From contig QCVY01000002.1 of assembly GCA_003208695.1 (NCBI GenBank), positions 1-33,411 on the forward strand: a stretch of 33,411 nucleotides of DNA, written 5' to 3'. A model generated the notes under the pieces. It saw only the letters and a program-made list of their open reading frames with translations. It had not been told where the DNA came from and searched no databases. Below are positions 35 to 25,398 of the stretch, piece by piece (position 1 is the first letter of the stretch; each line of letters begins with the position of its first letter). The DNA comes from Prochlorococcus sp. AG-686-P16 (GTDB lineage: Bacteria > Cyanobacteriota > Cyanobacteriia > PCC-6307 > Cyanobiaceae). A program made the position numbers and the translations under genes.

Positions 35-41
35 TAAAAAA

Positions 42-78
42 GGAGCTAGTTGCTCCTTATTTTAGATCGACTATCAGT
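42..78 (-). repeat. Cassette leader copy a (TGATAGTCGATCTAAAATAAGGAGCAACTAGCTCCTTTTTT)
   Basis: Reverse complement matches the leader family at 19,749, 21,297 and 22,800; perfect GGAGC/GCTCC hairpin followed by T-run. Confidence 0.8.
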
Positions 79-96
79 CACAAAAGTATTGAGATT

Positions 97-525: not shown

Positions 526-530
526 AAAAA

Positions 531-571
531 GAAAAGGAGCTGATTACCCCTTATTTTATATTGATTGTCAA
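531..571 (-). repeat. Cassette leader copy b (TTGACAATCAATATAAAATAAGGGGTAATCAGCTCCTTTTC)
   Basis: Same architecture as the other leaders; ends a few nt before the ATG of 97..525. Confidence 0.75.
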
Positions 572-657
572 TAATTACACCTTGTAATAAGGTATCGCTA
601 GTTGCAGATGGTTAAAAGGAAAAGAGCCAAAAGTTAATTAATAACTTGAAAGGTTTA

Positions 658-1055: not shown

Positions 1056-1056
1056 T

Positions 1057-1101
1057 AAAAAAAAAGAGGGTTTTATCCCTCTAATATAGATCGACTGTCA
1101 A
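1057..1101 (-). repeat. Cassette leader copy c (TTGACAGTCGATCTATATTAGAGGGATAAAACCCTCTTTTTTTTT)
   Basis: Conserved TTGACAGTCGATCTA then a different but perfect hairpin AGAGGG/CCCTCT plus T-run directly before the ATG of 798..1055. Confidence 0.85.
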
Positions 1102-1110
1102 TCAATCAAA

Positions 1111-3358: not shown

Positions 3359-3390
3359 AGAAAAAGACCTCTAATAGAGGTCTTTTTTAG
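3359..3390. terminator. Intrinsic terminator hairpin
   Basis: AAAAAGACCTCtaataGAGGTCTTTTTT. Confidence 0.8.
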
Positions 3391-3547
3391 TTTCAACTAA
3401 ATCAAGTGTTTCCTTGTTTCCACTTTTCAAGAAAAACATCTCTTACACAAATTCAAAACATGCCATAAATTTTGCTACACCTGAAGGGTATGAAGTATGT
3501 AATTTAATTGTCGCAGATACCCGTTATGACTTTCAGTTTTTATGTCA

Positions 3548-3618
3548 ATAAAAAACACCCTAATTTAGAGAAAAGGGTGCTTAATTATCAGAAATTAGTG
3601 TGTGAGGAGTTTCTGATA
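3548..3618 (-). ncRNA. Yfr1-like small RNA candidate
   Basis: Minus strand ATCAGAAA-CTCCTCACACACTAA-TTTCTGAT (8-bp stem with loop containing ACTCCTCACACAC), then CACCCT...AGGGTG + T-run terminator; plausible TTGATT-16nt-TAATTT promoter upstream. Confidence 0.55.
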
Positions 3619-3979: not shown

Positions 3980-4101
3980 TTCAGAACATTGCAATTAGTT
4001 ATTCTGTCGTAAGTATTGCATTACTAGGTAGTTTTATATATCTAACTTTTAACATAGCAAAAAGTGAATGAATTTTTATCCATAATTGATCCGTTTTAAA
4101 A

Positions 4102-4127
4102 TTGACATCCGATCTATATTGGAGTCA
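4102..4127 (+). promoter_or_regulatory. Isolated copy of the TTGACA..CGATCTATATT motif
   Basis: TTGACATCCGATCTATATTGGAGTCA lies 27 nt upstream of the ATG at 4,154; no hairpin of the cassette type. Confidence 0.6.
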
Positions 4128-4153
4128 TAAAACTCTATTTTTTTGCTAAATAA

Positions 4154-4267: not shown

Positions 4268-4350
4268 AAAATTACCTTTACTACATGAAACGCTTGTAAT
4301 ATTAAAATTTTAGAAAATTACAATTATTGCCATAAAAATCATAAGGATGC

Positions 4351-4536
4351 ATGATTAATAGAAATGGCAATAAAGTATTACTTATGGAACTTTCAGAATT
4401 TACTAAAGAAACAAGGGCAAAATTAAATGATCTTCTTAAATATTGGAAGAAATGGGAACATGTTAAAGATGATGATGTTCTTCAACTCTTAGATTCAATA
4501 GCTACAAGCTATGGAGGGAAAGTTGTAGATAGATAG
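4351..4536 (+). CDS. Hypothetical protein
   Basis: ORF 61 aa. Confidence 0.55.
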   Translation: MINRNGNKVLLMELSEFTKETRAKLNDLLKYWKKWEHVKDDDVLQLLDSIATSYGGKVVDR

Positions 4537-14225: not shown

Positions 14226-14666
14226 TTCTTATTTCCTACTTTCAGGATTTATAATACATAATATAAAGTCCATTTATTCATGAGCTTTAAATACGTGGAT
14301 AAGGGGATACATCTCGATAATTTTAGTCCTTTTTTGTCACTGGTAATTATAAAGCGAAGTCTTATCAGACTAATTGATTGAACTTTATTTATCGAGTAAT
14401 CCCATTGTCAGGAATACGCTTCCTATATTTGTAAATTTGCTAAATTTCAGGCGGACTATCAATCATTTAGATTGCCTCCTAACTCAACATTTATAAATTA
14501 CTACTATCTTGATTTCAAGTAAATCCGTAAATATGCTGATTTACTTTTTTATCGATTTGTACGAGAATTTTGATGCCTTGTTCGTTTTATGATATTTATC
14601 TAAATTGTAAATCTATACTTTTAATATTAAAGAAGTTTCTAGAAACCATAATTTAAGAGGCAGGAA

Positions 14667-16169: not shown

Positions 16170-18080
16170 ATGGCTGAAGCAACTCAAAAAGCTTCTATTA
16201 CAAAGGGTAAAGAGTCAGAGATAACTACTAAATATTCTATCTCATATATTCGTGTGAGTACGAAAAAACAAACCAAAGCCGAAGCATCAGGTATAGAAAG
16301 ACAGGAGGAAGAATATCAAAGATGGCTATATGAGCATCCAGAATATAAAAATTTAGATGGAGTTGAATTTATAGATTTAGGAGTTTCTGGTAGAGGTAAA
16401 AATAGCGAAAAAGGTGCATTGAGTGTTTTTATTAAAGAAGCTGAAAAGGGTAATTTACCTCCTCATACTTGTTTGGTTTGTAGTGATATGAGCAGACTTA
16501 CAAGAGAGCAGCCATATGAAGGTTTTACACTCTTAAAAAAAATATGGGATTTAGGGCATACATTTGCTTTCACTGAAGGTAGATGGAGAGGGGATGTTAT
16601 TACAGGAAGAGAAAGAGGAATGTTTGGTCTAGTTGAAATAGCTATAGATACAGCTTCTACGGAATGGGAAAGAAAAAGAGATAGGGCTAATGGCTACCAA
16701 AATAAAATTGCAAAGATGTTGGAGAAGAGAGATTTATCTTTTTTTAAATCTAGAGTAGAAGGAACAAAAATATCTATGTATCCTTTTTGGCTTGGATTTG
16801 ATGAAAAAATTAATGAATTTTATGTAATTGAAAAATGGGGGAAATTAGTTAAAAGAATATGTGATATGGCTCTTAATATGGGATCTAAAAAAATTGCATG
16901 GATATTAAAGCAAGAAGGGATTAAAAATGTACGTGGTAGATTTTTCGCGCCAAATACAATTAGACAAACAATATTGGATCATAGAGGTTTATTAGGAGAA
17001 AAAATTCATAACGGTATTACTTATAAAGGAATATATCCCCCAATAATTACCCCTGAGCTATTTGATTTAATACACTCTGCTAAAGAGAGTAGAAAACTAG
17101 ATTATAAAAATGGCCCTAAAAGTAAAATGGTAAACCTTTTTCAAGGATTAATATTTTGTGCTGAATGTGGAGGTTTAATGCAAGTTGCTAAAAAAACAAC
17201 ATTTAAATGTAAAAAAGCTAATGAAAAGAATGGAGAAAAAATAGAGATTGAATATGAAAATATTTATTGCGATAGAGCCAAAACCAAAAAAACTTGTAAG
17301 GCAACTAACTCAGCTCCTTATATTCAAAAACATAGAGATATTGATAATGAATTATTAATTCTTGAAAAAATATCAAAATTTAGATGGGAAGAATTTTTTA
17401 CAGATGAAAAGCACGATAGTGAATTAAATGCAAAAGTAGAGAAAAGGCAAAGATTATTGCATGACAGAAATAAAGTAGAAAAGATATTAGATAATCTTAA
17501 AAGATCAAATATTGAATATTTAAAACAAGGAAGAGTGGTGCCTATTGACCTTGATAAGTTACAGATAGAAGAACAGGAAAAGTATGATGAATTAAATAAA
17601 AAATACAATAAAGCAAAGCTAGATATTCAAAATTTAAAAAGGAAAAAAACAGGGAAAGAATTTAAAAAAGATATTCAAGAAAGAGTTCAGAATTTTATTA
17701 AAAAAGAAAGATTTATTCCTAAGAAAAGAGAAGAGTTTAATATTTGGCTTAAAGAAATAGGATTAGTAGTTACAGCAGATATTGAGATTACTGGAAGAAA
17801 TCCAAGAAAGAGTGCTAACAAGAATTATTACTTTGATACTGGTGTTGGAATGTTTGATTTCTTTACTAGAGAATTTAAAGGATTAAATCAAGTTGAGGAC
17901 GCTGCTAATGCTTTTGGAATGGATATTAAACAAGTTAGAAAAGAAGAAGCTATAAGAGAACAAATTTATAAAGAGCAAAGTTTAAAAGCTGGAAGAGATT
18001 TAAGATTTCATAAGCCTAAAAAAGAATTCAAAAAAATAACTGAAGAAGAATTTAGTAAACGAATTGAGGCAAAATTATGA
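16170..18080 (+). CDS. Large serine recombinase/integrase
   Basis: SYIRVSTKKQT...GIERQEEEYQRW catalytic N-terminus, recombinase domain (RGRFFAPNTIRQTILDHRGLLGEKIH), zinc ribbon LIFCAECGGLM, C-terminal coiled coil; 636 aa. Confidence 0.93.
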   Translation: MAEATQKASITKGKESEITTKYSISYIRVSTKKQTKAEASGIERQEEEYQRWLYEHPEYKNLDGVEFIDLGVSGRGKNSEKGALSVFIKEAEKGNLPPHTCLVCSDMSRLTREQPYEGFTLLKKIWDLGHTFAFTEGRWRGDVITGRERGMFGLVEIAIDTASTEWERKRDRANGYQNKIAKMLEKRDLSFFKSRVEGTKISMYPFWLGFDEKINEFYVIEKWGKLVKRICDMALNMGSKKIAWILKQEGIKNVRGRFFAPNTIRQTILDHRGLLGEKIHNGITYKGIYPPIITPELFDLIHSAKESRKLDYKNGPKSKMVNLFQGLIFCAECGGLMQVAKKTTFKCKKANEKNGEKIEIEYENIYCDRAKTKKTCKATNSAPYIQKHRDIDNELLILEKISKFRWEEFFTDEKHDSELNAKVEKRQRLLHDRNKVEKILDNLKRSNIEYLKQGRVVPIDLDKLQIEEQEKYDELNKKYNKAKLDIQNLKRKKTGKEFKKDIQERVQNFIKKERFIPKKREEFNIWLKEIGLVVTADIEITGRNPRKSANKNYYFDTGVGMFDFFTREFKGLNQVEDAANAFGMDIKQVRKEEAIREQIYKEQSLKAGRDLRFHKPKKEFKKITEEEFSKRIEAKL

Positions 18081-18829
18081 GCACTTACCTAGAAGAACGA
18101 ATTAAATACTATGACGAGGAATATCGTGCGGGGAGGGCTTTGATTTCTGATAAACAGTTCGACCAATTAGAAAAGAATCTTCTAAGGATTGCCCCTAAAT
18201 GCGATTACTTTAATAAGCAAAATAATTTAATTTTACCTTCATAAGCTAAAGACAATATCCAAGAATTTTTAGACGGCATTTTATCTGATACTCGATTATT
18301 AATAGAACCTAAGATCGATGGAGTTGCTATTGCGATCAAATATATAGATGGCAAATTGGAAAAAGCTATAAGTAGGAAGGGACATGATGTCACAGAAAAA
18401 ATCAAAACAATTAAAAGTATCCCCAGAGAAATCAGTATTAGATCAAATTTTGTGGTTCGTGGAGAATTATTTGCCAAAGAAGAAGAGCCCGCAACTAGCC
18501 AAAGAATCGCAAGTGGGTATCTCAGGAGCAAAAGCTACGAACCTAACCAAAAAATCACGTTCGCAGCCTTCCAGATCATCAACGGCAACTGCAACCAATA
18601 CGAAAGTCTCAATTACCTTAGGAAATTGGGCTTCTCCGTACTTGAAAGTTATCAAGCAAATCGGACTTCTCAAATAGAAACTTATAGGCAAGCATGGAGG
18701 TCTAAAAAACTCTTTGCTGATATTCCTACTGATGGAATAGTTATAAAAATAAATTCTAGAAAATTACAATTATTAAGAGAAAAATCTTATAGTTGCTATC
18801 CTTTTTGGCAGATGGCTATAAAGTATTAG
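18077..18829 (+). pseudogene. NAD-dependent DNA ligase-like (Ia + adenylation region), interrupted by one in-frame TAA at 18,242
   Basis: Continuous frame MSTYLEERIKYYDEEYRAG..ISDKQFDQLEKNL..LILPS*AKDNIQEFLDG...LLIEPKIDGVAIAIKY...VVRGELF..; ATGA overlap with integrase. Confidence 0.75.
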
Positions 18830-18849
18830 AAAATAAATTATTTAGAGTT

Positions 18850-19332
18850 ATGGCGGAAGAAACAAAGAAAGACGAAAAGATAAAAGACACCAGAATGTTT
18901 TATAAAAAGAAAAGGTATATTATCCCAGTTGTTTTAACTGCTTTAGCTGCACTAGGTTCGATATGGACTCACAATAATATTTATCAACTTGTAGATGAAT
19001 GTAATGATGGTTCGATGAAAGCATGTAAGGAGATAGAAAATGATTATGACTATACTCTTGATGATGAGGACGTACAATCTCGATTAACCAATCCATACTT
19101 AGTAGATAAAATAAACAAATTGAATGAAAAGCTAAACGAAGAGAATAGGAGGTATTCAGCTATGGGACGTTGCAAAAGGTATCTAAAAGCAAATATGAAA
19201 GATCCAGATAGTTTTAAATTAATTAATAGTGCAAGTGCTCAATTCAATACTGGAATTATTCAATACTCTGCTACTAATAGTTTTGGTGGCAGAGTACAAG
19301 ATTCATATAAATGTTTTGAGCCAAAGTATTAG
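18850..19332 (+). CDS. Hypothetical membrane-anchored protein
   Basis: Track ORF 18793..19332 with start moved to MAEETKKDEK; YLKANMKDPDSFKLINS...ATNSFGG pattern. Confidence 0.65.
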   Translation: MAEETKKDEKIKDTRMFYKKKRYIIPVVLTALAALGSIWTHNNIYQLVDECNDGSMKACKEIENDYDYTLDDEDVQSRLTNPYLVDKINKLNEKLNEENRRYSAMGRCKRYLKANMKDPDSFKLINSASAQFNTGIIQYSATNSFGGRVQDSYKCFEPKY

Positions 19333-19335
19333 TGG

Positions 19336-19710
19336 ATGAATAACGATCTTAAAAAAGGTTTTTTTAATGGCGTAGGCGGTTTCTTAGGCGTAATTATTAT
19401 TCCTTTAATTGGTTTAGGGATATGGAAAGTCTCTCCTTTAGCAAAGTCTTTATTTATAGGAATATTTGACCCTGAATTAAAAGAGTTTAGGCAATGTGAG
19501 AATAAAGCTTATAAAGATTGGTTGGTAACTCTTATAAGTTCAGATTATAAAAAATTTGAAAGAATACAAAAAATTCTGAAAGAAAATCCCAAAAGTGATA
19601 AAGCAAAATTAGAGAAACTTTTTAAAGATATGTACTTCGTTATATACAGACAGGGAATATGTGGAATGAATAGAACTGAAAAGAAAAGTTATGGTGTACA
19701 AGGTTATTAA
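19336..19710 (+). CDS. Hypothetical membrane protein
   Basis: ORF 124 aa; starts 4 nt after previous stop. Confidence 0.6.
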   Translation: MNNDLKKGFFNGVGGFLGVIIIPLIGLGIWKVSPLAKSLFIGIFDPELKEFRQCENKAYKDWLVTLISSDYKKFERIQKILKENPKSDKAKLEKLFKDMYFVIYRQGICGMNRTEKKSYGVQGY

Positions 19711-19734
19711 ATGAAACGCTTAATACTTGCACCG
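19708..19734 (+). repeat. Cassette 3' module (TAAATGAAACGCTTAATACTTGCACCG)
   Basis: Begins at the stop codon of 19336..19710; matches the other 3' modules. Confidence 0.7.
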
Positions 19735-19748
19735 TTAAAAGTTAGTAA

Positions 19749-19781
19749 TTGACAGTCGATCTAAAATAAGGGGCAATTAGC
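19749..19781 (+). repeat. Cassette leader copy e (TTGACAGTCGATCTAAAATAAGGGGCAATTAGC)
   Basis: Near-identical to 21,297, 22,800 and 23,133; upstream of the ATG at 19,792. Confidence 0.9.
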
Positions 19782-19791
19782 AAATTAATAA

Positions 19792-20367
19792 ATGGAATAT
19801 ACAAAAGAACAAATTATTTATATACAGGAAAATAAACCAGAATTTGTATTAAAAGAAGTCCCTTCACTTGATTTTGTCGTAGTTGAATTTCTTAAAAAAT
19901 ATGAGGTTTTTGTAAAGCCTATGACTTCAGGTTCAAGAAATGTTGGAGAAGATGTTGCCTCTGGAGTATTAACTGGATTAGCTGGCCCAGATGTTGGATT
20001 AGATGCTTACGGAGTGAGTGGTCAAAAGAAACAAACTGCAGTTCAAGAATGGACACAATGGAAACAATGGACATTAAATCATAAAGATTTTGAAGATTTT
20101 AGAGCAAAGAAAATAGATGAACCCAAGGCTTTAAATATGAAGGTTTTAGAGAAATTAAAAGATCCAATGGTGCAAAAAGAGTTAGAGCCATTAATGGAAG
20201 CCTTTGGTAAAAAAGATAAAGCAGCAAAGAAAGGAATTATTATTGGTTTAATATTATTTTTTGGAATTTTTGGTGGTTTAAATATCTACTTCTTATTAGA
20301 AGATAATCAAATTTTTAAAAATAATAATAGGTCTAGTTATGTCCCTAGAAACTTAGATATTAAATAA
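19792..20367 (+). CDS. Hypothetical protein with C-terminal TM
   Basis: ORF 191 aa. Confidence 0.7.
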   Translation: MEYTKEQIIYIQENKPEFVLKEVPSLDFVVVEFLKKYEVFVKPMTSGSRNVGEDVASGVLTGLAGPDVGLDAYGVSGQKKQTAVQEWTQWKQWTLNHKDFEDFRAKKIDEPKALNMKVLEKLKDPMVQKELEPLMEAFGKKDKAAKKGIIIGLILFFGIFGGLNIYFLLEDNQIFKNNNRSSYVPRNLDIK

Positions 20368-20412
20368 AACGCTTACTACTTGCACAGCTTGTTGATAGCT
20401 GCTCTAAATAAG
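20365..20412 (+). repeat. Cassette spacer: 3' module plus diverged leader f
   Basis: TAAATAAAACGCTTACTACTTGCACAGCTTGTTGATAGCTGCTCTAAATAAG. Confidence 0.7.
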
Positions 20413-20430
20413 AAATAAATAAATTAGCTT

Positions 20431-20802
20431 ATGTCAATACAATTTATTGAAGAGTTTGATAATGCATCAAAAAAAACCGCCCCTGGTTCAAAAGGAATAG
20501 CCATTTTAAATATTTTGATTGTTATTAGTTCCATAATTGCCATACCTTTCACTTGGGGATTTAGCCTTTTTAGTTTATTCGCAGTTCCTATTTATTCAGC
20601 ATTACAATCAATTGCTAATGAAACATATAGAACAAGATTATTTACTGAAATTCAAACTCAGATTATTGCTGAAAAAGAAGGATTATTTAAAAAACCTCGT
20701 ATGAGGAGAATAGCTCGCTCAGCTCCAATTTATGAAGAAGAACTGATAGACGAAACTGACGATATTGATGAAGAAAATTTAGATGATGATATTGATAAAT
20801 AA
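20431..20802 (+). CDS. Hypothetical membrane protein with acidic tail
   Basis: ORF 123 aa; two TM segments, EEELIDETDDIDEENLDDDIDK. Confidence 0.65.
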   Translation: MSIQFIEEFDNASKKTAPGSKGIAILNILIVISSIIAIPFTWGFSLFSLFAVPIYSALQSIANETYRTRLFTEIQTQIIAEKEGLFKKPRMRRIARSAPIYEEELIDETDDIDEENLDDDIDK

Positions 20803-20850
20803 AACCCTTACTAATTGCACAGCTTTATTATTGTCAGATCGCTATTAAGT
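20800..20850 (+). repeat. Cassette spacer: 3' module plus diverged leader g
   Basis: TAAATAAAACCCTTACTAATTGCACAGCTTTATTATTGTCAGATCGCTATTAAG. Confidence 0.65.
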
Positions 20851-20854
20851 ATTA

Positions 20855-21004
20855 ATGGAACTTGAGAAAGGAGAAATAATTGAAATTCCAGTAGAAAATC
20901 CTACTAATTTCACAAATCCAAATCAACCAGACATTGAGATTATTGTTTTAAGTTTTACTGTAGTTTTATTAATATTGGCTATCTATATTAAAAATCGGCA
21001 TTAA
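20855..21004 (+). CDS. 49-aa TM peptide MELEKGEIIEIPVENPTNFTNPNQPDIEIIVLSFTVVLLILAIYIKNRH
   Basis: Translated by eye; sits in the array between spacer g and the next unit. Confidence 0.55.
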   Translation: MELEKGEIIEIPVENPTNFTNPNQPDIEIIVLSFTVVLLILAIYIKNRH

Positions 21005-21296
21005 TACCGATATACAGAAAAAAATAATCATAGTAATTTCATCTTGATCTAACGGATCTAAGCTAAAAATTCTGAGATTGTTTCCATTTAAAGGCTGGAT
21101 TACAATCTCTTTTTTAATGTAGAGAGCTAGGACTGTTTGCATGACAGTACACCTATTAATTAATGAGACTAGCCAACCTATTTACCGTACTTTTCACGTC
21201 TTAGGTTAAGACTAGATTTTCAAAAACAACCAATATTTTGTCCAATATTTTCTAACATTATGTCCAAGACGTATGAGACCCGCTAATAGTTAGTAA

Positions 21297-21338
21297 TTGA
21301 CAGTCGATCTACAATAAGGGGCAATTAGCTCCCTTTTT
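21297..21338 (+). repeat. Cassette leader copy h (TTGACAGTCGATCTACAATAAGGGGCAATTAGCTCCCTTTTTTT)
   Basis: Extended identity with copy e including upstream GTTAGTAA. Confidence 0.9.
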
Positions 21339-21350
21339 TTATCTTGCTAT

Positions 21351-22379
21351 ATGTATGAGTATTTTTTAAAAATCATAATTATATTTTCTGTTATTTCTCC
21401 TCTTAAAATTTATGCTTCAACCGATGATAAGAAAGTAGTTATTACCCTCACAAATGGGGATATATTGAATGGAACTTTAATTGAAAGTAAAAGTAACAAT
21501 GATGTAAAAACATTAGATCATCCACAATTAGGAGAGCTTACTATTAGTGAATCAATAATCGAAAGTTTTAAGTTAGATGGAAAAGCTACTGAAGATAAAA
21601 CTAATAGCATCGCTGATACAAATACTGCCACTTTTTCAATTTCTAAAAATAATATTTCAGAAGTAAAAATTAATGATGAAATTTCGAAATGGAGTGGATC
21701 AATAAGTATCGGTTTAGATAAGGATATTGAATATGAAGATTTTTTTAAAAGAACATTAGGTTTAGATTTAAGTATTGATTTAACTAATGAAAAAAGTATC
21801 TATACAAATACCATTTCATTTGATTGGACAAAAGATGAATCTCAATATGAAATTGGAGGATCATACTACGTGAGTGATTCTCTTGAAATTGATCAAAAAA
21901 CAAGTATGGATACAAGTAACAGAAATATGGAAATATATTTTTCTAATAATTATGACTATAACTCGGATGCGTCCTATGGTAAAAATTCATTAATTTCATC
22001 TATTGGTTTAACCAAAGGATTTTTTGCCTCAGATGATACTTCTTTATCAATCTCTGCTGGACCTGCTATACATTTTGTTTATGGAGGTAATGAATGCGAT
22101 ATAACTACTGACTGTGGTGAAACTTATCTATCAAGTGTTTTTAGCATTAATTTTTCAAATAAACTAAGTAAAAAATTTGAATTAGAAATCAATAATATTT
22201 TTACTTCAAGTTACGCAAGTACTGCTATTTATGGAAATGAATTATCAACTACCTTAACTTTTAGACCAAGTGATAGTTCTGGTTTTAATACTTCTTTTGA
22301 ATATCAAAATGATTATAAAGAGTTTAGTAACCCAAAATTTGAAGATAAATATTCTTTAAATGTAGGTTATGATTTTTGA
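21351..22379 (+). CDS. DUF481-like outer-membrane beta-barrel protein
   Basis: Signal peptide; LTNGDILNGTLIE..; repeating beta-strand pattern ending in aromatic residue (VGYDF). Confidence 0.75.
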   Translation: MYEYFLKIIIIFSVISPLKIYASTDDKKVVITLTNGDILNGTLIESKSNNDVKTLDHPQLGELTISESIIESFKLDGKATEDKTNSIADTNTATFSISKNNISEVKINDEISKWSGSISIGLDKDIEYEDFFKRTLGLDLSIDLTNEKSIYTNTISFDWTKDESQYEIGGSYYVSDSLEIDQKTSMDTSNRNMEIYFSNNYDYNSDASYGKNSLISSIGLTKGFFASDDTSLSISAGPAIHFVYGGNECDITTDCGETYLSSVFSINFSNKLSKKFELEINNIFTSSYASTAIYGNELSTTLTFRPSDSSGFNTSFEYQNDYKEFSNPKFEDKYSLNVGYDF

Positions 22380-22473
22380 TTATTTTGATTCCTTATAATA
22401 TTAAGCTTACTAATTCCACCGATTTAGTTAGTTTTTAATTATTTTGCTATATCTATATAAATTATACATTTAA

Positions 22474-22770
22474 ATGAAAATATTATTATTGCTTCCTTTG
22501 TTATTAGGTTTCTCAGTTCCAGTTCTTGCACATAACGAAGCTAATGGAGGTCTAGTACCTCTGCCAGGAATGGGTGGAATGCCAGGAATAGGTGGAACGC
22601 CTAAAAAGGACTGTCCAAGTGGTCCTACATTTAATAATCAGGGGAAAAATCCTCTAACTAAACAAATTGTTGATTATAAAGGAAGAAGATGTTCTTCAGC
22701 TACATGCATAACTGTTCGAAATGGAGATAATTGGAAAGGAGTTTGGAGTTGTTCAGGTAGACCAGAATAA
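22474..22770 (+). CDS. Small exported Gly/Pro-rich, Cys-containing protein
   Basis: Signal peptide MKILLLLPLLLGFSVPVLA; four or more Cys; LPGMGGMPGIGGTP. Confidence 0.65.
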   Translation: MKILLLLPLLLGFSVPVLAHNEANGGLVPLPGMGGMPGIGGTPKKDCPSGPTFNNQGKNPLTKQIVDYKGRRCSSATCITVRNGDNWKGVWSCSGRPE

Positions 22771-22799
22771 TTATCAAAAATTGATTTAGTTGTAGTAGG

Positions 22800-22838
22800 T
22801 TGTCGATCTACAATAAGGGGCAATTAGCTCCTTTTTTT
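22800..22838 (+). repeat. Cassette leader copy i
   Basis: TGTCGATCTACAATAAGGGGCAATTAGCTCCTTTTTTT; here located between convergent genes. Confidence 0.85.
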
Positions 22839-23049
22839 AATGGTTATGTTTGTGCATATAGCATGGCATCCACTTATCACCCATTTGATGAGCTCCTTTA
22901 CATTTAAATTTATAAGCTTCTTTTACAGCCTGTTCTTTTGTATCAAATAACATTGGCATTTTCATTTCTTTTTCAACGGTTTTATTTGAACAACTTAACG
23001 AAAAAATTGACATAAAAAAAAAGGGAAGAAAAGAAATAAAGTGTTTCAA
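22837..23049 (-). CDS. DUF3721-like small lipoprotein
   Basis: Signal/lipobox FSLSCSN; KFKCKGAHQMGDKWMPC. Confidence 0.75.
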   Translation of the reverse strand: MKHFISFLPFFFMSIFSLSCSNKTVEKEMKMPMLFDTKEQAVKEAYKFKCKGAHQMGDKWMPCYMHKHNH

Positions 23050-23132
23050 AATTAATTTATAAAATCAAGGCAGCTTAGTATTAAATATCTTTCGAAATAT
23101 TTTAAAAATTGATTTCTTTACAAATATATTGA

Positions 23133-23163
23133 TTGACAGTCGATTTACAATAAGGGGCAATTT
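23133..23163 (+). repeat. Cassette leader copy j (TTGACAGTCGATTTACAATAAGGGGCAATTT)
   Basis: One-base variant of copies e/h. Confidence 0.85.
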
Positions 23164-23303
23164 TCTGAAGCCTCGAATGAAAAGTTTGATAAATTCCCTT
23201 TATCAGATGGTTATGTAATACGTAATACCAAAATATGATGGTTTAGCACTTGATTTATTAAAAATTGAAGCTTGTAAGAAATATGCAAAATTTGAAGATT
23301 AAA
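23164..23303 (+). pseudogene. Decayed cassette ORF
   Basis: Fragments SEASNEKFDKFPLSDGYVIR and LDLLKIEACKKYAKFED-stop in different frames between leader j and a 3' module. Confidence 0.5.
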
Positions 23304-23329
23304 TAAAACTCTTACTACTTTGACTGCCT
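23300..23329 (+). repeat. Cassette 3' module (TAAATAAAACTCTTACTACTTTGACTGCC)
   Basis: Begins at the stop of the decayed ORF. Confidence 0.7.
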
Positions 23330-23560
23330 AATAATATTATTTCTTCTAACTTGAATATTCGCTTTTATCTTTTCTGCAAGAGTTGGAAGATTTGGTGGTT
23401 CTAATATTAAAAAAACTCTTCCTGATTTTTCTAAATGAATATAGTCTTCTAATACATCTCTATTAAGTAATCTATATAAAGTTTTGGTGCTTTTGTAGCC
23501 TAACTTTTTAGCTGTTTGGCTGATTGTATATGCCTCAAAATGGAAAGATATTGGTTTCAT
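23315..23560 (-). CDS. Small HTH protein (excisionase/MerR-like)
   Basis: YTISQTAKKLGYKSTKTLYRLLNR. Confidence 0.6.
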   Translation of the reverse strand: MKPISFHFEAYTISQTAKKLGYKSTKTLYRLLNRDVLEDYIHLEKSGRVFLILEPPNLPTLAEKIKANIQVRRNNIIRQSK

Positions 23561-23739
23561 CTTACATTATTTACATTAGGTGAGATCAATTGCCATAAAA
23601 TGATTCTAGCCCATTCGCCTTATCAGGAAGTTGTAAAAGCATGTCTATATACAGCGGGTAGTGCCTAGGGAGATTTTGCCGTACGAAATCACTCACAGCC
23701 TGAACACCACAAAGAACCTATTTTCAAAATTACTATTGT

Positions 23740-23824
23740 CTTATGTCTTACATCTTTCCTAATAACTTCTAGAAATTATTAATACAAAGATAATTGTTTT
23801 TAGGAAGAATAGATAAGACATAAG
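23740..23824. repeat. Nested inverted repeats; candidate replication origin
   Basis: CTTATGTCTTA (23740-23750) / TAAGACATAAG (23814-23824); TTCCTAA / TTAGGAA; AATAACTTCTAGAAATTATT near-palindrome inside. Confidence 0.5.
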
Positions 23825-23901
23825 GCAACCTCTGAAATCCAAATCGCATCATTTCTTTTGGTGTCATAGAGAAAAATTATTCTGCTAAGACACATAAGTC
23901 A

Positions 23902-25185
23902 CTAAACCTCTTGATTTCCTTTATCAGGCAACTGTGTAATTCTTGGTTTCATTTCTATTTGTTCAATAGTCCATTCTGGATGAAACCAATAATAAGTCTT
24001 TTTTCCATAAAATCTATATTGCTTCTTATCATGTCCTAACTTTCTCAAGCAATCTGCGACCTCTTTTACATCTTTATCTCTTACTTGCTCATCATTTCTA
24101 CAACCGCTATTAACCAAAGCTTGAACAGTCGTAAATCTATATTTATTATGCTCTTTATTAGTCCATTCTTCTATTCGTGAAAAGAAGGGATGCTCTGCTT
24201 CAAAATTTAAATTTCTGATATTTATTTCCTTTTTAAATTCATCCTTTAAATCTAATATCATGCCTTCTTTATAAGCCAAAAGAGCAGCTTTCCAAATTCG
24301 ATCTCTATCTTTTAAAACCTTATTATTATTAATTAAATTACCTTCTAGATTGATTACCCAAAACCTTCTAGAGCCAGTTGGATCATTTAGAAAATCGTTC
24401 CTATTACAACTTGAAACCATTATTAAAGGTCTTGGATAAGCCCCAATACTCCTTCCATAAGGTCTTCTAAATGTATCAACAGGACTTGATAAAAGAGCTT
24501 TTAATGATGCCGCTTTTTCAGAATTTGGTGAGATCCTATCAAGTTCAGCAATTTCAAAAATCCAACATCTTTGAAGAGTCATTGCTAGGTCTTGATACTT
24601 TGGTTGCCATGTATCAGCAAAGAAATCGTCAGAAGCTAAATATCTCCAAAAAGTAGATTTTCCGGTTCCTTGCTTACCAACTAATACACAACAATTATCA
24701 AATTTAACACCACGATTTTTGACCCTTGCAACTGCTGAAATAAGAGTCATTTTTAGCATCTGGTTGAATAACTTAGATTCAGTTCCTAAGTAGTCGCTTG
24801 CAATTGTTTCTATGTCAATTGGTTTAATTGATTTATCTGATGTAATTCTTTCTAGATATGCATTGACTGGATGATATGTATTTTGACGAGCAGCTGTTAA
24901 TAAACCATCAAAAGCTGCGTCTTTTCTAATGTTATAACCATACATATTTAGATAAGTTGAAAAATCCTCAATCATATCTAAAGGAATAGGCAATTTATCA
25001 AATTCAGGTTCTAAAGTTAAAAGATTATAGGTCAATCTAGAAGAACAATAAGTAACTAAAAGTTCTACAAGATCACCAGAATCAATCTTCTTTTTTCTAT
25101 TCCCTTCAAAGCCTTTTGGGAGTTTTATCTTATTAAGAAAACCAGTATTAAATCTTATTTTCTTTGGAATAGGTTCATTAGTCAT
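23902..25185 (-). CDS. VapE-type P-loop helicase/NTPase
   Basis: CCVLVGKQGTGKSTFWRYLA Walker A; CWIFEIAELD; LIMVSSCNRNDFLNDPTGSRRFWVI typical of the virulence-associated E family. Confidence 0.88.
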   Translation of the reverse strand: MTNEPIPKKIRFNTGFLNKIKLPKGFEGNRKKKIDSGDLVELLVTYCSSRLTYNLLTLEPEFDKLPIPLDMIEDFSTYLNMYGYNIRKDAAFDGLLTAARQNTYHPVNAYLERITSDKSIKPIDIETIASDYLGTESKLFNQMLKMTLISAVARVKNRGVKFDNCCVLVGKQGTGKSTFWRYLASDDFFADTWQPKYQDLAMTLQRCWIFEIAELDRISPNSEKAASLKALLSSPVDTFRRPYGRSIGAYPRPLIMVSSCNRNDFLNDPTGSRRFWVINLEGNLINNNKVLKDRDRIWKAALLAYKEGMILDLKDEFKKEINIRNLNFEAEHPFFSRIEEWTNKEHNKYRFTTVQALVNSGCRNDEQVRDKDVKEVADCLRKLGHDKKQYRFYGKKTYYWFHPEWTIEQIEMKPRITQLPDKGNQEV

Positions 25186-25215
25186 ATAGCAACCAAATCT
25201 TTTTTTTATAAATCA

Positions 25216-25398
25216 TTAGAGAACCTCTTTATGCCTTTTCAGACAGTCTTTGATTAATGCCCTCATTAGCTCTGCCTTTGTACACTTGTAATGCTCAGAT
25301 AATTGACCAAACTTTTCAAAAGTAAAATCATTTACTCTGCATTGAAGTGTTGGCGTCGCATCCACTTTTTGTGTTCTCTCCTTAACATCAAGCAACAT
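25216..25398 (-). CDS. Ribbon-helix-helix/CopG-like DNA-binding protein
   Basis: PTLQCRVNDFTFEKFGQLSEHYKCTKAELMRALIKDCLKRH. Confidence 0.65.
   Translation of the reverse strand: MLLDVKERTQKVDATPTLQCRVNDFTFEKFGQLSEHYKCTKAELMRALIKDCLKRHKEVL

What the first reader, a model, noticed from the sequence alone, without database searches (positions are those of the whole stretch)
19708..23329. Gene-cassette-like array: unrelated ORFs between shared 5' and 3' modules
Seen directly: consecutive ORFs with no visible similarity to each other (191-aa TM protein, acidic membrane protein, 49-aa TM peptide, DUF481-like barrel, Gly-rich secreted protein, decayed ORF) are separated by homologous spacers. The 3' module begins exactly at the stop codon: TAAATGAAACGCTTAATACTTGCACCG (19708), TAAATAAAACGCTTACTACTTGCACAGCTT (20365), TAAATAAAACCCTTACTAATTGCACAGCTTT (20800), TAAATAAAACTCTTACTACTTTGACTGCC (23300). 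The 5' module is TTGACAGTCGATCTAmAATAAGGGGCAATTAGC(TCC) at 19749, 21297, 22800 and 23133, with diverged forms at 20392 and 20831. Conserved ends around variable ORFs is the layout of exchangeable cassettes. No integron integrase or attC-like fold was recognised, so exchange could be by homologous recombination at the modules or by an unknown mechanism.
Basis: partly seen in the sequence, partly recalled or inferred. Interest (0 to 1): 0.88.

Follow-up and report, generated by a model that had tools for sequence, protein, structure and literature searches.

The report
Shuffled gene cassettes in Prochlorococcus islands
In the variable islands of the ocean cyanobacterium Prochlorococcus, small unrelated genes sit between short reusable DNA parts (a combined stop-and-start signal for transcription, and the first codons of an export signal), and gene neighbours are swapped at those parts with no integron machinery found, sometimes into cyanophage genomes.

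Summary
The "5' module" is a ~48-bp composite element (E): a near-palindrome GATTGACAGTCGATC, a TANNNT (-10-like) box, and a hairpin plus T-run that looks like an intrinsic terminator. It ends 0-2 nt before the next gene's ATG. The "3' module" (L) is the start of a Sec signal-peptide coding sequence (MKRLLLAPL...). It is present full length in many genes with unrelated mature proteins, and as stubs or relics here. The diverged "5' module" at 20831 is a third shared piece, the 3' tail of a DNA-ligase gene (T).

E, L and T recur across the genus. At E junctions, loci sharing the upstream side share the downstream side in 9% of pairs, against 84% at ordinary junctions in the same islands; L junctions behave alike (13%). 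The same ORF occurs with the same modules beside different neighbours, also in MED4. E-cassettes occur in T4-like cyanophage contigs. No integron integrase was found, and MED4 has arrays but only a core tyrosine recombinase.

Best reading: homologous recombination at dispersed expression modules, working like the PeSL promoter-terminator motifs of T4-like phages, here in a host chromosome. Promoter and terminator activity are inferred.

The parts
19708..19752 (+). Module L (signal-peptide start) stub directly after ORF 19336-19710: TAA + ATGAAACGCTTAATACTTGCACCG..., mini-ORF MKRLILAPLKVSN*
   Evidence: sequence; genus-wide copies and full-length relatives
19747..19791 (+). Module E: AATTGACAGTCGATC, TAAAAT box, GGGGCAATTAGC; terminator 3' arm lost; ATG of the 191-aa ORF at 19792
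19792..20367 (+). Cassette ORF, 191 aa, no clear Pfam family; relatives in other genomes keep E in front and in three of them L behind
20361..20390 (+). Module L relic (ATG changed to ATA; supplies the stop of ORF 19792-20367)
20391..20430 (+). Diverged module E (TTGATAGCTGCTCTAAAT...)
20431..20802 (+). Cassette ORF, 123 aa, acidic membrane protein
20796..20831 (+). Module L relic, fused to module T
20832..20857 (+). Module T: tail of a DNA-ligase gene (TGtCAGATcGCTATTAAGTATTAATG), overlapping the ATG of the 49-aa ORF
20855..21004 (+). Cassette ORF, 49-aa TM peptide; the same cassette with the same L+T linker lies in MED4 (L037:4474) after a different gene
21295..21337 (+). Module E with complete hairpin GGGGCAATTAGCTCC + T7
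21351..22379 (+).
22474..22770 (+). Cassette ORF, 98 aa, Gly-rich secreted protein
22800..22835 (+). Module E (5' end altered; best hairpin-terminator, 7-bp stem + T7), between convergent ORFs 22474-22770 (+) and 22837-23049 (-)
23131..23165 (+). Module E without terminator stem, before a decayed ORF
23300..23326 (+). Module L relic after the decayed ORF
1056..1103 (-). Module E, second stem type AGAGGG-ATAAAA-CCCTCT + T9, between ORFs 1111-1431 and 798-1055 (ATG directly after the T-run)
526..573 (-). Diverged module E directly before ATG of the cupin ORF 97-525
40..79 (-). Module E after ORF 97-525; the T-run is followed by the ATG of an ORF leaving the contig
4100..4147 (+). Diverged module E (AATTGACATCCGATCTATATTGGAGTCATAAAACTCTATTTTTTT)
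18077..18829 (+). Decayed NAD-dependent DNA ligase gene (in-frame stop at 18242); source-like full copy of module T at its 3' end (18806-18829)
16170..18080 (+). Large serine recombinase (Resolvase, Recombinase, Zn ribbon); neighbour, not the general agent

Best explanation
The array is a piece of a genus-wide pool of single-gene cassettes in Prochlorococcus genomic islands. Short shared sequences join them: E (about 48 bp), L (about 60 bp, signal-peptide start) and T (ligase-gene tail). I infer that E works as a portable insulated start. Its hairpin and T-run end the transcript coming from the previous gene, and the TANNNT box inside it starts a new one about 17 nt before the next ATG, with the start site in the hairpin loop so that the new mRNA does not carry the hairpin. 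The near-palindrome just upstream of the -10 box (about -27 to -13) is probably an operator for a shared regulator. Because E, L and T are repeated many times per genome, and occasionally carried by T4-like cyanophages, they are patches of identity at which RecA or phage-type homologous recombination exchanges what lies on either side. Selection keeps junctions in which a gene lands with a start signal, an export signal or a stop. Shown here: the repeats, their fixed position, neighbour exchange at E and L, phage-borne copies, and absence of an integron integrase. Inferred: promoter and terminator activity, the regulator, and the recombination enzyme.
For: Composite anatomy: in 194 copies from 1.17 Mb the conserved block has sharp edges. 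T-A---T is 97/98/93% conserved with A/C-rich positions between, the signature of a -10 box. ATG falls 26-31 nt after the core in most copies. The hairpin region folds at -5.7 kcal/mol against -1.1 shuffled, with two unrelated stem types and 43 distinct stems in 88 sequences. TANNNT is kept in 97% of copies followed by ATG against 81% of the others; T-run 83% against 55%. Exchange: P(downstream homologous | upstream homologous) is 0.09 at E (0.14 without leader stubs), 0.84 at ordinary junctions in the same islands and 0.94 outside. Family level: 22/28 against 3/15 (p=3e-4) and 32/39 against 4/14 (p=5e-4). Linkage to the upstream neighbour ends at the palindrome. L junctions: 0.13 and 0.15. L: among 60 genes with distinct mature parts, DNA identity is 0.88 at the ATG, 0.62 at nt 50-60, and about 0.29-0.35 outside. 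Same ORF, same modules, other neighbours: relatives of the 191-aa ORF; 49-aa cassette in MED4. Phage: L218 and L219 carry E+gene beside uvsX and phoH; homology to known cyanophages starts exactly at the uvsX ATG. No single agent: serine recombinase in 5/117 genomes, integron integrase 0/88 over cut-off, RT 3/88, MED4 only the core tyrosine recombinase.
Against: No transcription start or termination data were available, and the -10 box has no clear -35 partner. The palindromic region shows conserved sequence, not covariation, so its role is open. The hairpin type is only partly linked to either neighbour. A replacement right up to the ATG is not explained by simple crossover in homology and needs T-run/ATG microhomology or repeated small exchanges. 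Pairs of loci are not independent, and the control junctions were chosen with larger ORFs (80 aa or more), so the contrast may be somewhat overstated. E core identity (17-20 bp) is short for RecA.
Confidence: 0.66

Rival explanations
1. E is a site-specific recombination site: a recombinase acting in trans (from phages, tycheposon-like elements or the core genome) crosses over in the near-palindrome and moves single-gene cassettes, as in an integron but with another enzyme.
For: Linkage to the upstream neighbour ends at the palindrome. The palindrome is the most conserved part. Large serine recombinases lie next to some arrays (window; G020 C10:296267 about 6-8 kb from E copies).
Against: L and T, unrelated in sequence, also act as junctions. 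The serine recombinase is in 5 of 117 genomes. MED4 has 14 E copies and one tyrosine recombinase, the core one at 495 kb.
Confidence: 0.12
2. E is only a standard promoter/terminator of island genes, spread by ordinary vertical and horizontal inheritance; the shuffling is general island scrambling and the modules play no part in it.
For: E has promoter-like and terminator-like anatomy at fixed distance from the ATG. Islands are known to be variable.
Against: Ordinary junctions within 3 kb of E in the same islands keep both neighbours in 84% of upstream-matched pairs against 9% at E, and in 12/15 families against 6/28.
Confidence: 0.15
3. Cassettes are copies of mRNAs: units run from ATG to the terminator T-run like leaderless transcripts and were inserted after reverse transcription.
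For: T-run and next ATG abut with 0-2 nt between; hairpin type switches exactly up to the ATG.
Against: Reverse transcriptase genes in only 3 of 88 genomes; the -10-like box inside E would not be part of such a transcript; no poly-A, target-site duplication or intron was seen.
Confidence: 0.05
4. L stub plus E hairpin form a leader-peptide attenuator controlling the next gene.
For: In about 18 places a mini-ORF (MKRLLLAPLY*, MKRLLLAPLIVSN*) ends at the start of E.
Against: Most E copies have no stub (17 of 194 have one). In this window three of four L copies have lost the ATG. The peptide is simply the start of the signal peptide.
Confidence: 0.04

Closest known systems
PeSLs, promoter(early)-stem-loop motifs of T4-like phages (Arbiol et al. 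2010; Comeau et al. 2014, as cited in PMC4503421)
   Same: Composite promoter-terminator motif between unrelated small genes, described as mediating modular shuffling of genes.
   Different: Here in host chromosome islands of one genus, with a different sequence, a near-palindrome, and two further coding modules (signal-peptide start, ligase tail). Host-phage sharing of the same motif is seen in three contigs. PeSL details beyond the citing text are from memory.
48-bp repeat 'PRE1' of Prochlorococcus islands (Coleman et al. 2006; from memory, not held in the library)
   Same: Length, genus, island location and copy number (about 13 in a strain, as I recall; 14 found in the genome identified as MED4) fit E; probably the same sequence.
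   Different: As far as I recall it was reported as a repeat, without composite anatomy, fixed ATG distance, neighbour-exchange test or phage copies. Could not be checked.
Integron gene cassette arrays
   Same: Single small ORFs in same-strand arrays between shared short sites; 80 of 88 neighbouring E pairs on the same strand.
   Different: No IntI, no attC recognised; each cassette has its own start-like signal; breakpoints in three different modules.
Tycheposons and replacement flexible genomic islands
   Same: Same islands. Some arrays start directly at tRNA-Pro-derived att-like ends. Exchange of island content by homologous recombination is known for replacement islands (title of PMC4033161).
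   Different: Tycheposons are 4-200 kb units moved by a recombinase at tRNA genes; here the units are single genes.

Membership tests
Integron | Integron integrase (IntI, TIGR02249) | tested here: not met
   0 of 88 genomes over the cut-off; 4 weak matches only
Integron | attC sites at cassette ends | tested here: inconclusive
   Modules L and E carry no attC-like long hairpin; no attC covariance model was run
Integron | Array of exchangeable single-gene cassettes at shared sites | tested here: met
PeSL | Terminator-like stem-loop with T-run combined with a promoter between genes | tested here: inconclusive
   Sequence anatomy met; activity not measured
PeSL | Marks places of gene shuffling | tested here: met
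PeSL | Located in T4-like phage genomes, early promoter class | tested here: not met
   Mainly host islands; 3 of 2.9 million viral contigs, none in GenBank phages
Tycheposon | Integrated at a tRNA gene | tested here: inconclusive
   tRNA-Pro fragments and tandem 11-bp repeats directly upstream of some E arrays in other genomes; no tRNA in this window
Tycheposon | Tyrosine recombinase in the element | tested here: not met
   Window has a large serine recombinase instead; MED4 arrays have none nearby
PRE1 repeat | Same 48-bp sequence as published | not testable with these tools
   Paper not held; length and distribution agree

The most novel reading that the evidence does not exclude
Prochlorococcus and its T4-like phages share a working modular gene-assembly system. 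Reusable parts with edges at functional boundaries (transcription stop/start ending at the ATG; a signal-peptide coding piece from ATG to the cleavage site; a stop-carrying gene tail) are recombined continuously, so that new small secreted or membrane proteins are built, expressed and exchanged, much like exon shuffling in a bacterium without introns or integrons.
Probability: 0.3. Interest if true: 0.85.

Novelty: new variant of a known kind. Interest (0 to 1): 0.7.

Why it matters
Prochlorococcus is the most abundant photosynthetic organism, and its islands carry most of its stress-, nutrient- and phage-related variation. How single genes turn over there without integrons or many transposons is open. 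These modules give a concrete, countable junction for that process, predict a shared regulator for unrelated island genes, and link host islands to cyanophages through the same 48-bp part. The signal-peptide module is direct sequence evidence for domain shuffling at the DNA level in a streamlined bacterium. MED4 and its phages are cultured, so the predictions can be tested.

Tried and rejected
Pure 3' terminator reading of E: rejected as complete, because E has a fixed distance to the downstream ATG and keeps that distance even where the hairpin is lost (window 19747).

RNA-structure reading of the palindrome: only sequence conservation, little covariation.

tRNA-fragment reading of GGGGCAATTAGCTC: considered on sight, dropped once it folded as a hairpin; no tRNA in the window.

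Rfam families: only Yfr8, Yfr10 and Cyano-1 elsewhere in the window.

GenBank phages with E consensus: only partial, AT-driven matches in Vibrio, Bacillus and similar phages, judged chance.

Large serine recombinase as agent: rejected as general cause (5/117 genomes).

Papers on MED4 transcription starts (Voigt 2014, Vogel 2003), tycheposons (Hackl 2023) and Kettler 2007 are not held.
Full report
WHAT IS THERE. The window is contig C2 of a 52%-complete Prochlorococcus-like genome. With tools, three modules can be told apart.

Two unrelated stems occur (AAGGGGC-AATTA-GCTCCTT and AGAGGG-ATAAAA-CCCTCT). In 194 copies from 1.17 Mb of islands of other genomes plus the window, conservation starts and stops sharply. 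The positions T, A and T of TANNNT are kept in 97, 98 and 93% with looser positions between. Most copies have an ATG 26-31 nt after the core. The hairpin part of copies followed by ATG folds at -5.7 kcal/mol, shuffled -1.1. Stems vary with pairing kept, 43 different stems in 88 sequences. E therefore looks like an intrinsic terminator and a -10 promoter box in one 48-bp piece. If the usual 6-8 nt separate -10 box and start, the start lies in the loop, so the new mRNA would not contain the hairpin while read-through RNA would. That step is inference.

Full-length relatives read MKRLLLPLLAALALPTAVNA- or MKRLLLAPLLLxxIPSANA- followed by unrelated mature proteins. Among 60 such genes with distinct mature parts, unrelated pairs are 0.27-0.43 identical in DNA before the ATG, 0.88 falling to 0.62 over the first 60 nt, and 0.28-0.35 after it; the drop lies at the end of the signal peptide. 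In this window all four copies are stubs or relics, three of them with ATG changed to ATA.

Module T is the 3' tail of a DNA-ligase gene. A decayed full copy lies at 18077-18829, and a fusion L+T stands before the 49-aa ORF at 20855.

DISTRIBUTION. L occurs in 200 of 267 genomes of the genus, reversed control 0. E occurs in 14 of 14 searched, about 5-15 copies each, control 0. In a family-wide sample E is in 22 of 24 genomes of the genus and in only 2 of 276 genomes of other genera, one copy each. In seven closed genomes 66 of 80 E copies have another within 20 kb; 18 expected at random. Genome lengths match, from memory, MED4 (G033), MIT9312 (G019), MIT9515 (G023) and MIT9215 (G001). The window carries Yfr8 and Yfr10, which in MED4 lie in genomic island 1 (PMC2518516).

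NEIGHBOUR EXCHANGE. For each pair of E copies I asked whether the 250 bp upstream and the 250 bp downstream are homologous. If the upstream side is shared, the downstream side is shared in 9% of pairs (14% without leader stubs); in the other direction 15%. At ordinary intergenic junctions within 3 kb of E the values are 84% and 44%, outside 94% and 89%. By families, 22 of 28 upstream families have more than one downstream partner against 3 of 15 in the island control (p=3e-4), and 32 of 39 against 4 of 14 in the other direction (p=5e-4). Limits: loci are related, and control ORFs were at least 80 aa. Block identities show that the upstream neighbour is linked up to the palindrome, while the hairpin travels partly with the downstream gene. 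L junctions behave the same: 13% and 15%.

The window's own cassettes show it directly. Relatives of the 191-aa ORF in L146, L043, L053, L039 and L202 have E in front, and in L053, L107 and L202 have L behind, with otherwise different surroundings. The 49-aa ORF with its L+T linker and its 3' region lies in MED4 behind a DUF3764 gene instead of the 123-aa ORF; homology begins at the linker.

VEHICLES. Three viral contigs carry E. L218 is a T4-like cyanophage piece (UvsX, gp41 helicase) with three E copies and two island-type genes directly before uvsX; related phages match from the uvsX ATG onwards. L219 has E plus a 41-aa island gene right after phoH. Some arrays in other genomes begin at a tRNA-Pro fragment with tandem 11-bp repeats, which I read as the att end of a tycheposon-like element. 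So cassettes travel in phages and probably in tRNA-targeting elements, but those are carriers rather than the shuffling agent.

MECHANISM. An integron is excluded as far as tested: no integron integrase over cut-off in 88 genomes. The large serine recombinase next to this array is in 5 of 117 genomes. Reverse transcriptase is in 3 of 88. MED4 has 14 E copies but only the tyrosine recombinase common to most genomes searched, at 495 kb. Three unrelated modules acting alike points to a general process, homologous recombination at repeated patches, with selection keeping junctions at functional edges. Exact replacement of the hairpin up to the ATG is the least explained point.

KNOWN OR NEW. It works like the PeSL motifs of T4-like phages, described as promoter early stem loops that mediate shuffling of genes (PMC4503421). 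It is not a PeSL by location and sequence. From memory, a 48-bp repeat named PRE1 was reported in Prochlorococcus islands in 2006 and is probably E; this could not be checked here. New here, as far as I can tell, are the composite anatomy with fixed ATG distance, the quantitative neighbour exchange, the signal-peptide module, and E-cassettes in cyanophages. Hence: new variant of a known kind.

Noticed in passing
L025, L042, L044, L047, L050, L062, L065, L075 (upstream of E copies): Pairs of 11-bp direct repeats whose sequence differs from place to place but agrees within a pair (ATTCACACTTT x2, ACCCAAACTTT x2, TTAGCGATTAT x2), some beside tRNA-Pro fragments and one in a cyanophage contig (L218). 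They look like recombinase arm sites with changing specificity.
   Followed up: partly
window 16170-25398: Large serine recombinase, decayed NAD-DNA ligase, VapE-like helicase (23902-25185, minus) and a 60-aa ORF bracket the array; possibly the remains of one integrative element. A related recombinase lies about 6-8 kb from E copies in G020.
   Followed up: partly
window 18077-18829: NAD-dependent DNA ligase adenylation-domain gene with an in-frame stop at about 18242; a second decayed piece of its 3' end with an L relic lies at about 4285-4380.
   Followed up: partly
window 14262-14488, 3540-3617, 3385-3452: Yfr8, Yfr10 and Cyano-1 RNAs; Yfr8/9 and Yfr10 mark genomic island 1 in MED4 (PMC2518516).
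   Followed up: partly
L217 (IMG/VR 85-kb contig): E copy at the contig end beside phage structural genes; only 2 kb of the contig was held.
   Followed up: no
G422:C1:314186 and G358:C17:601: Single E copies in two genomes of other genera of the family; possible recent transfers.
   Followed up: no
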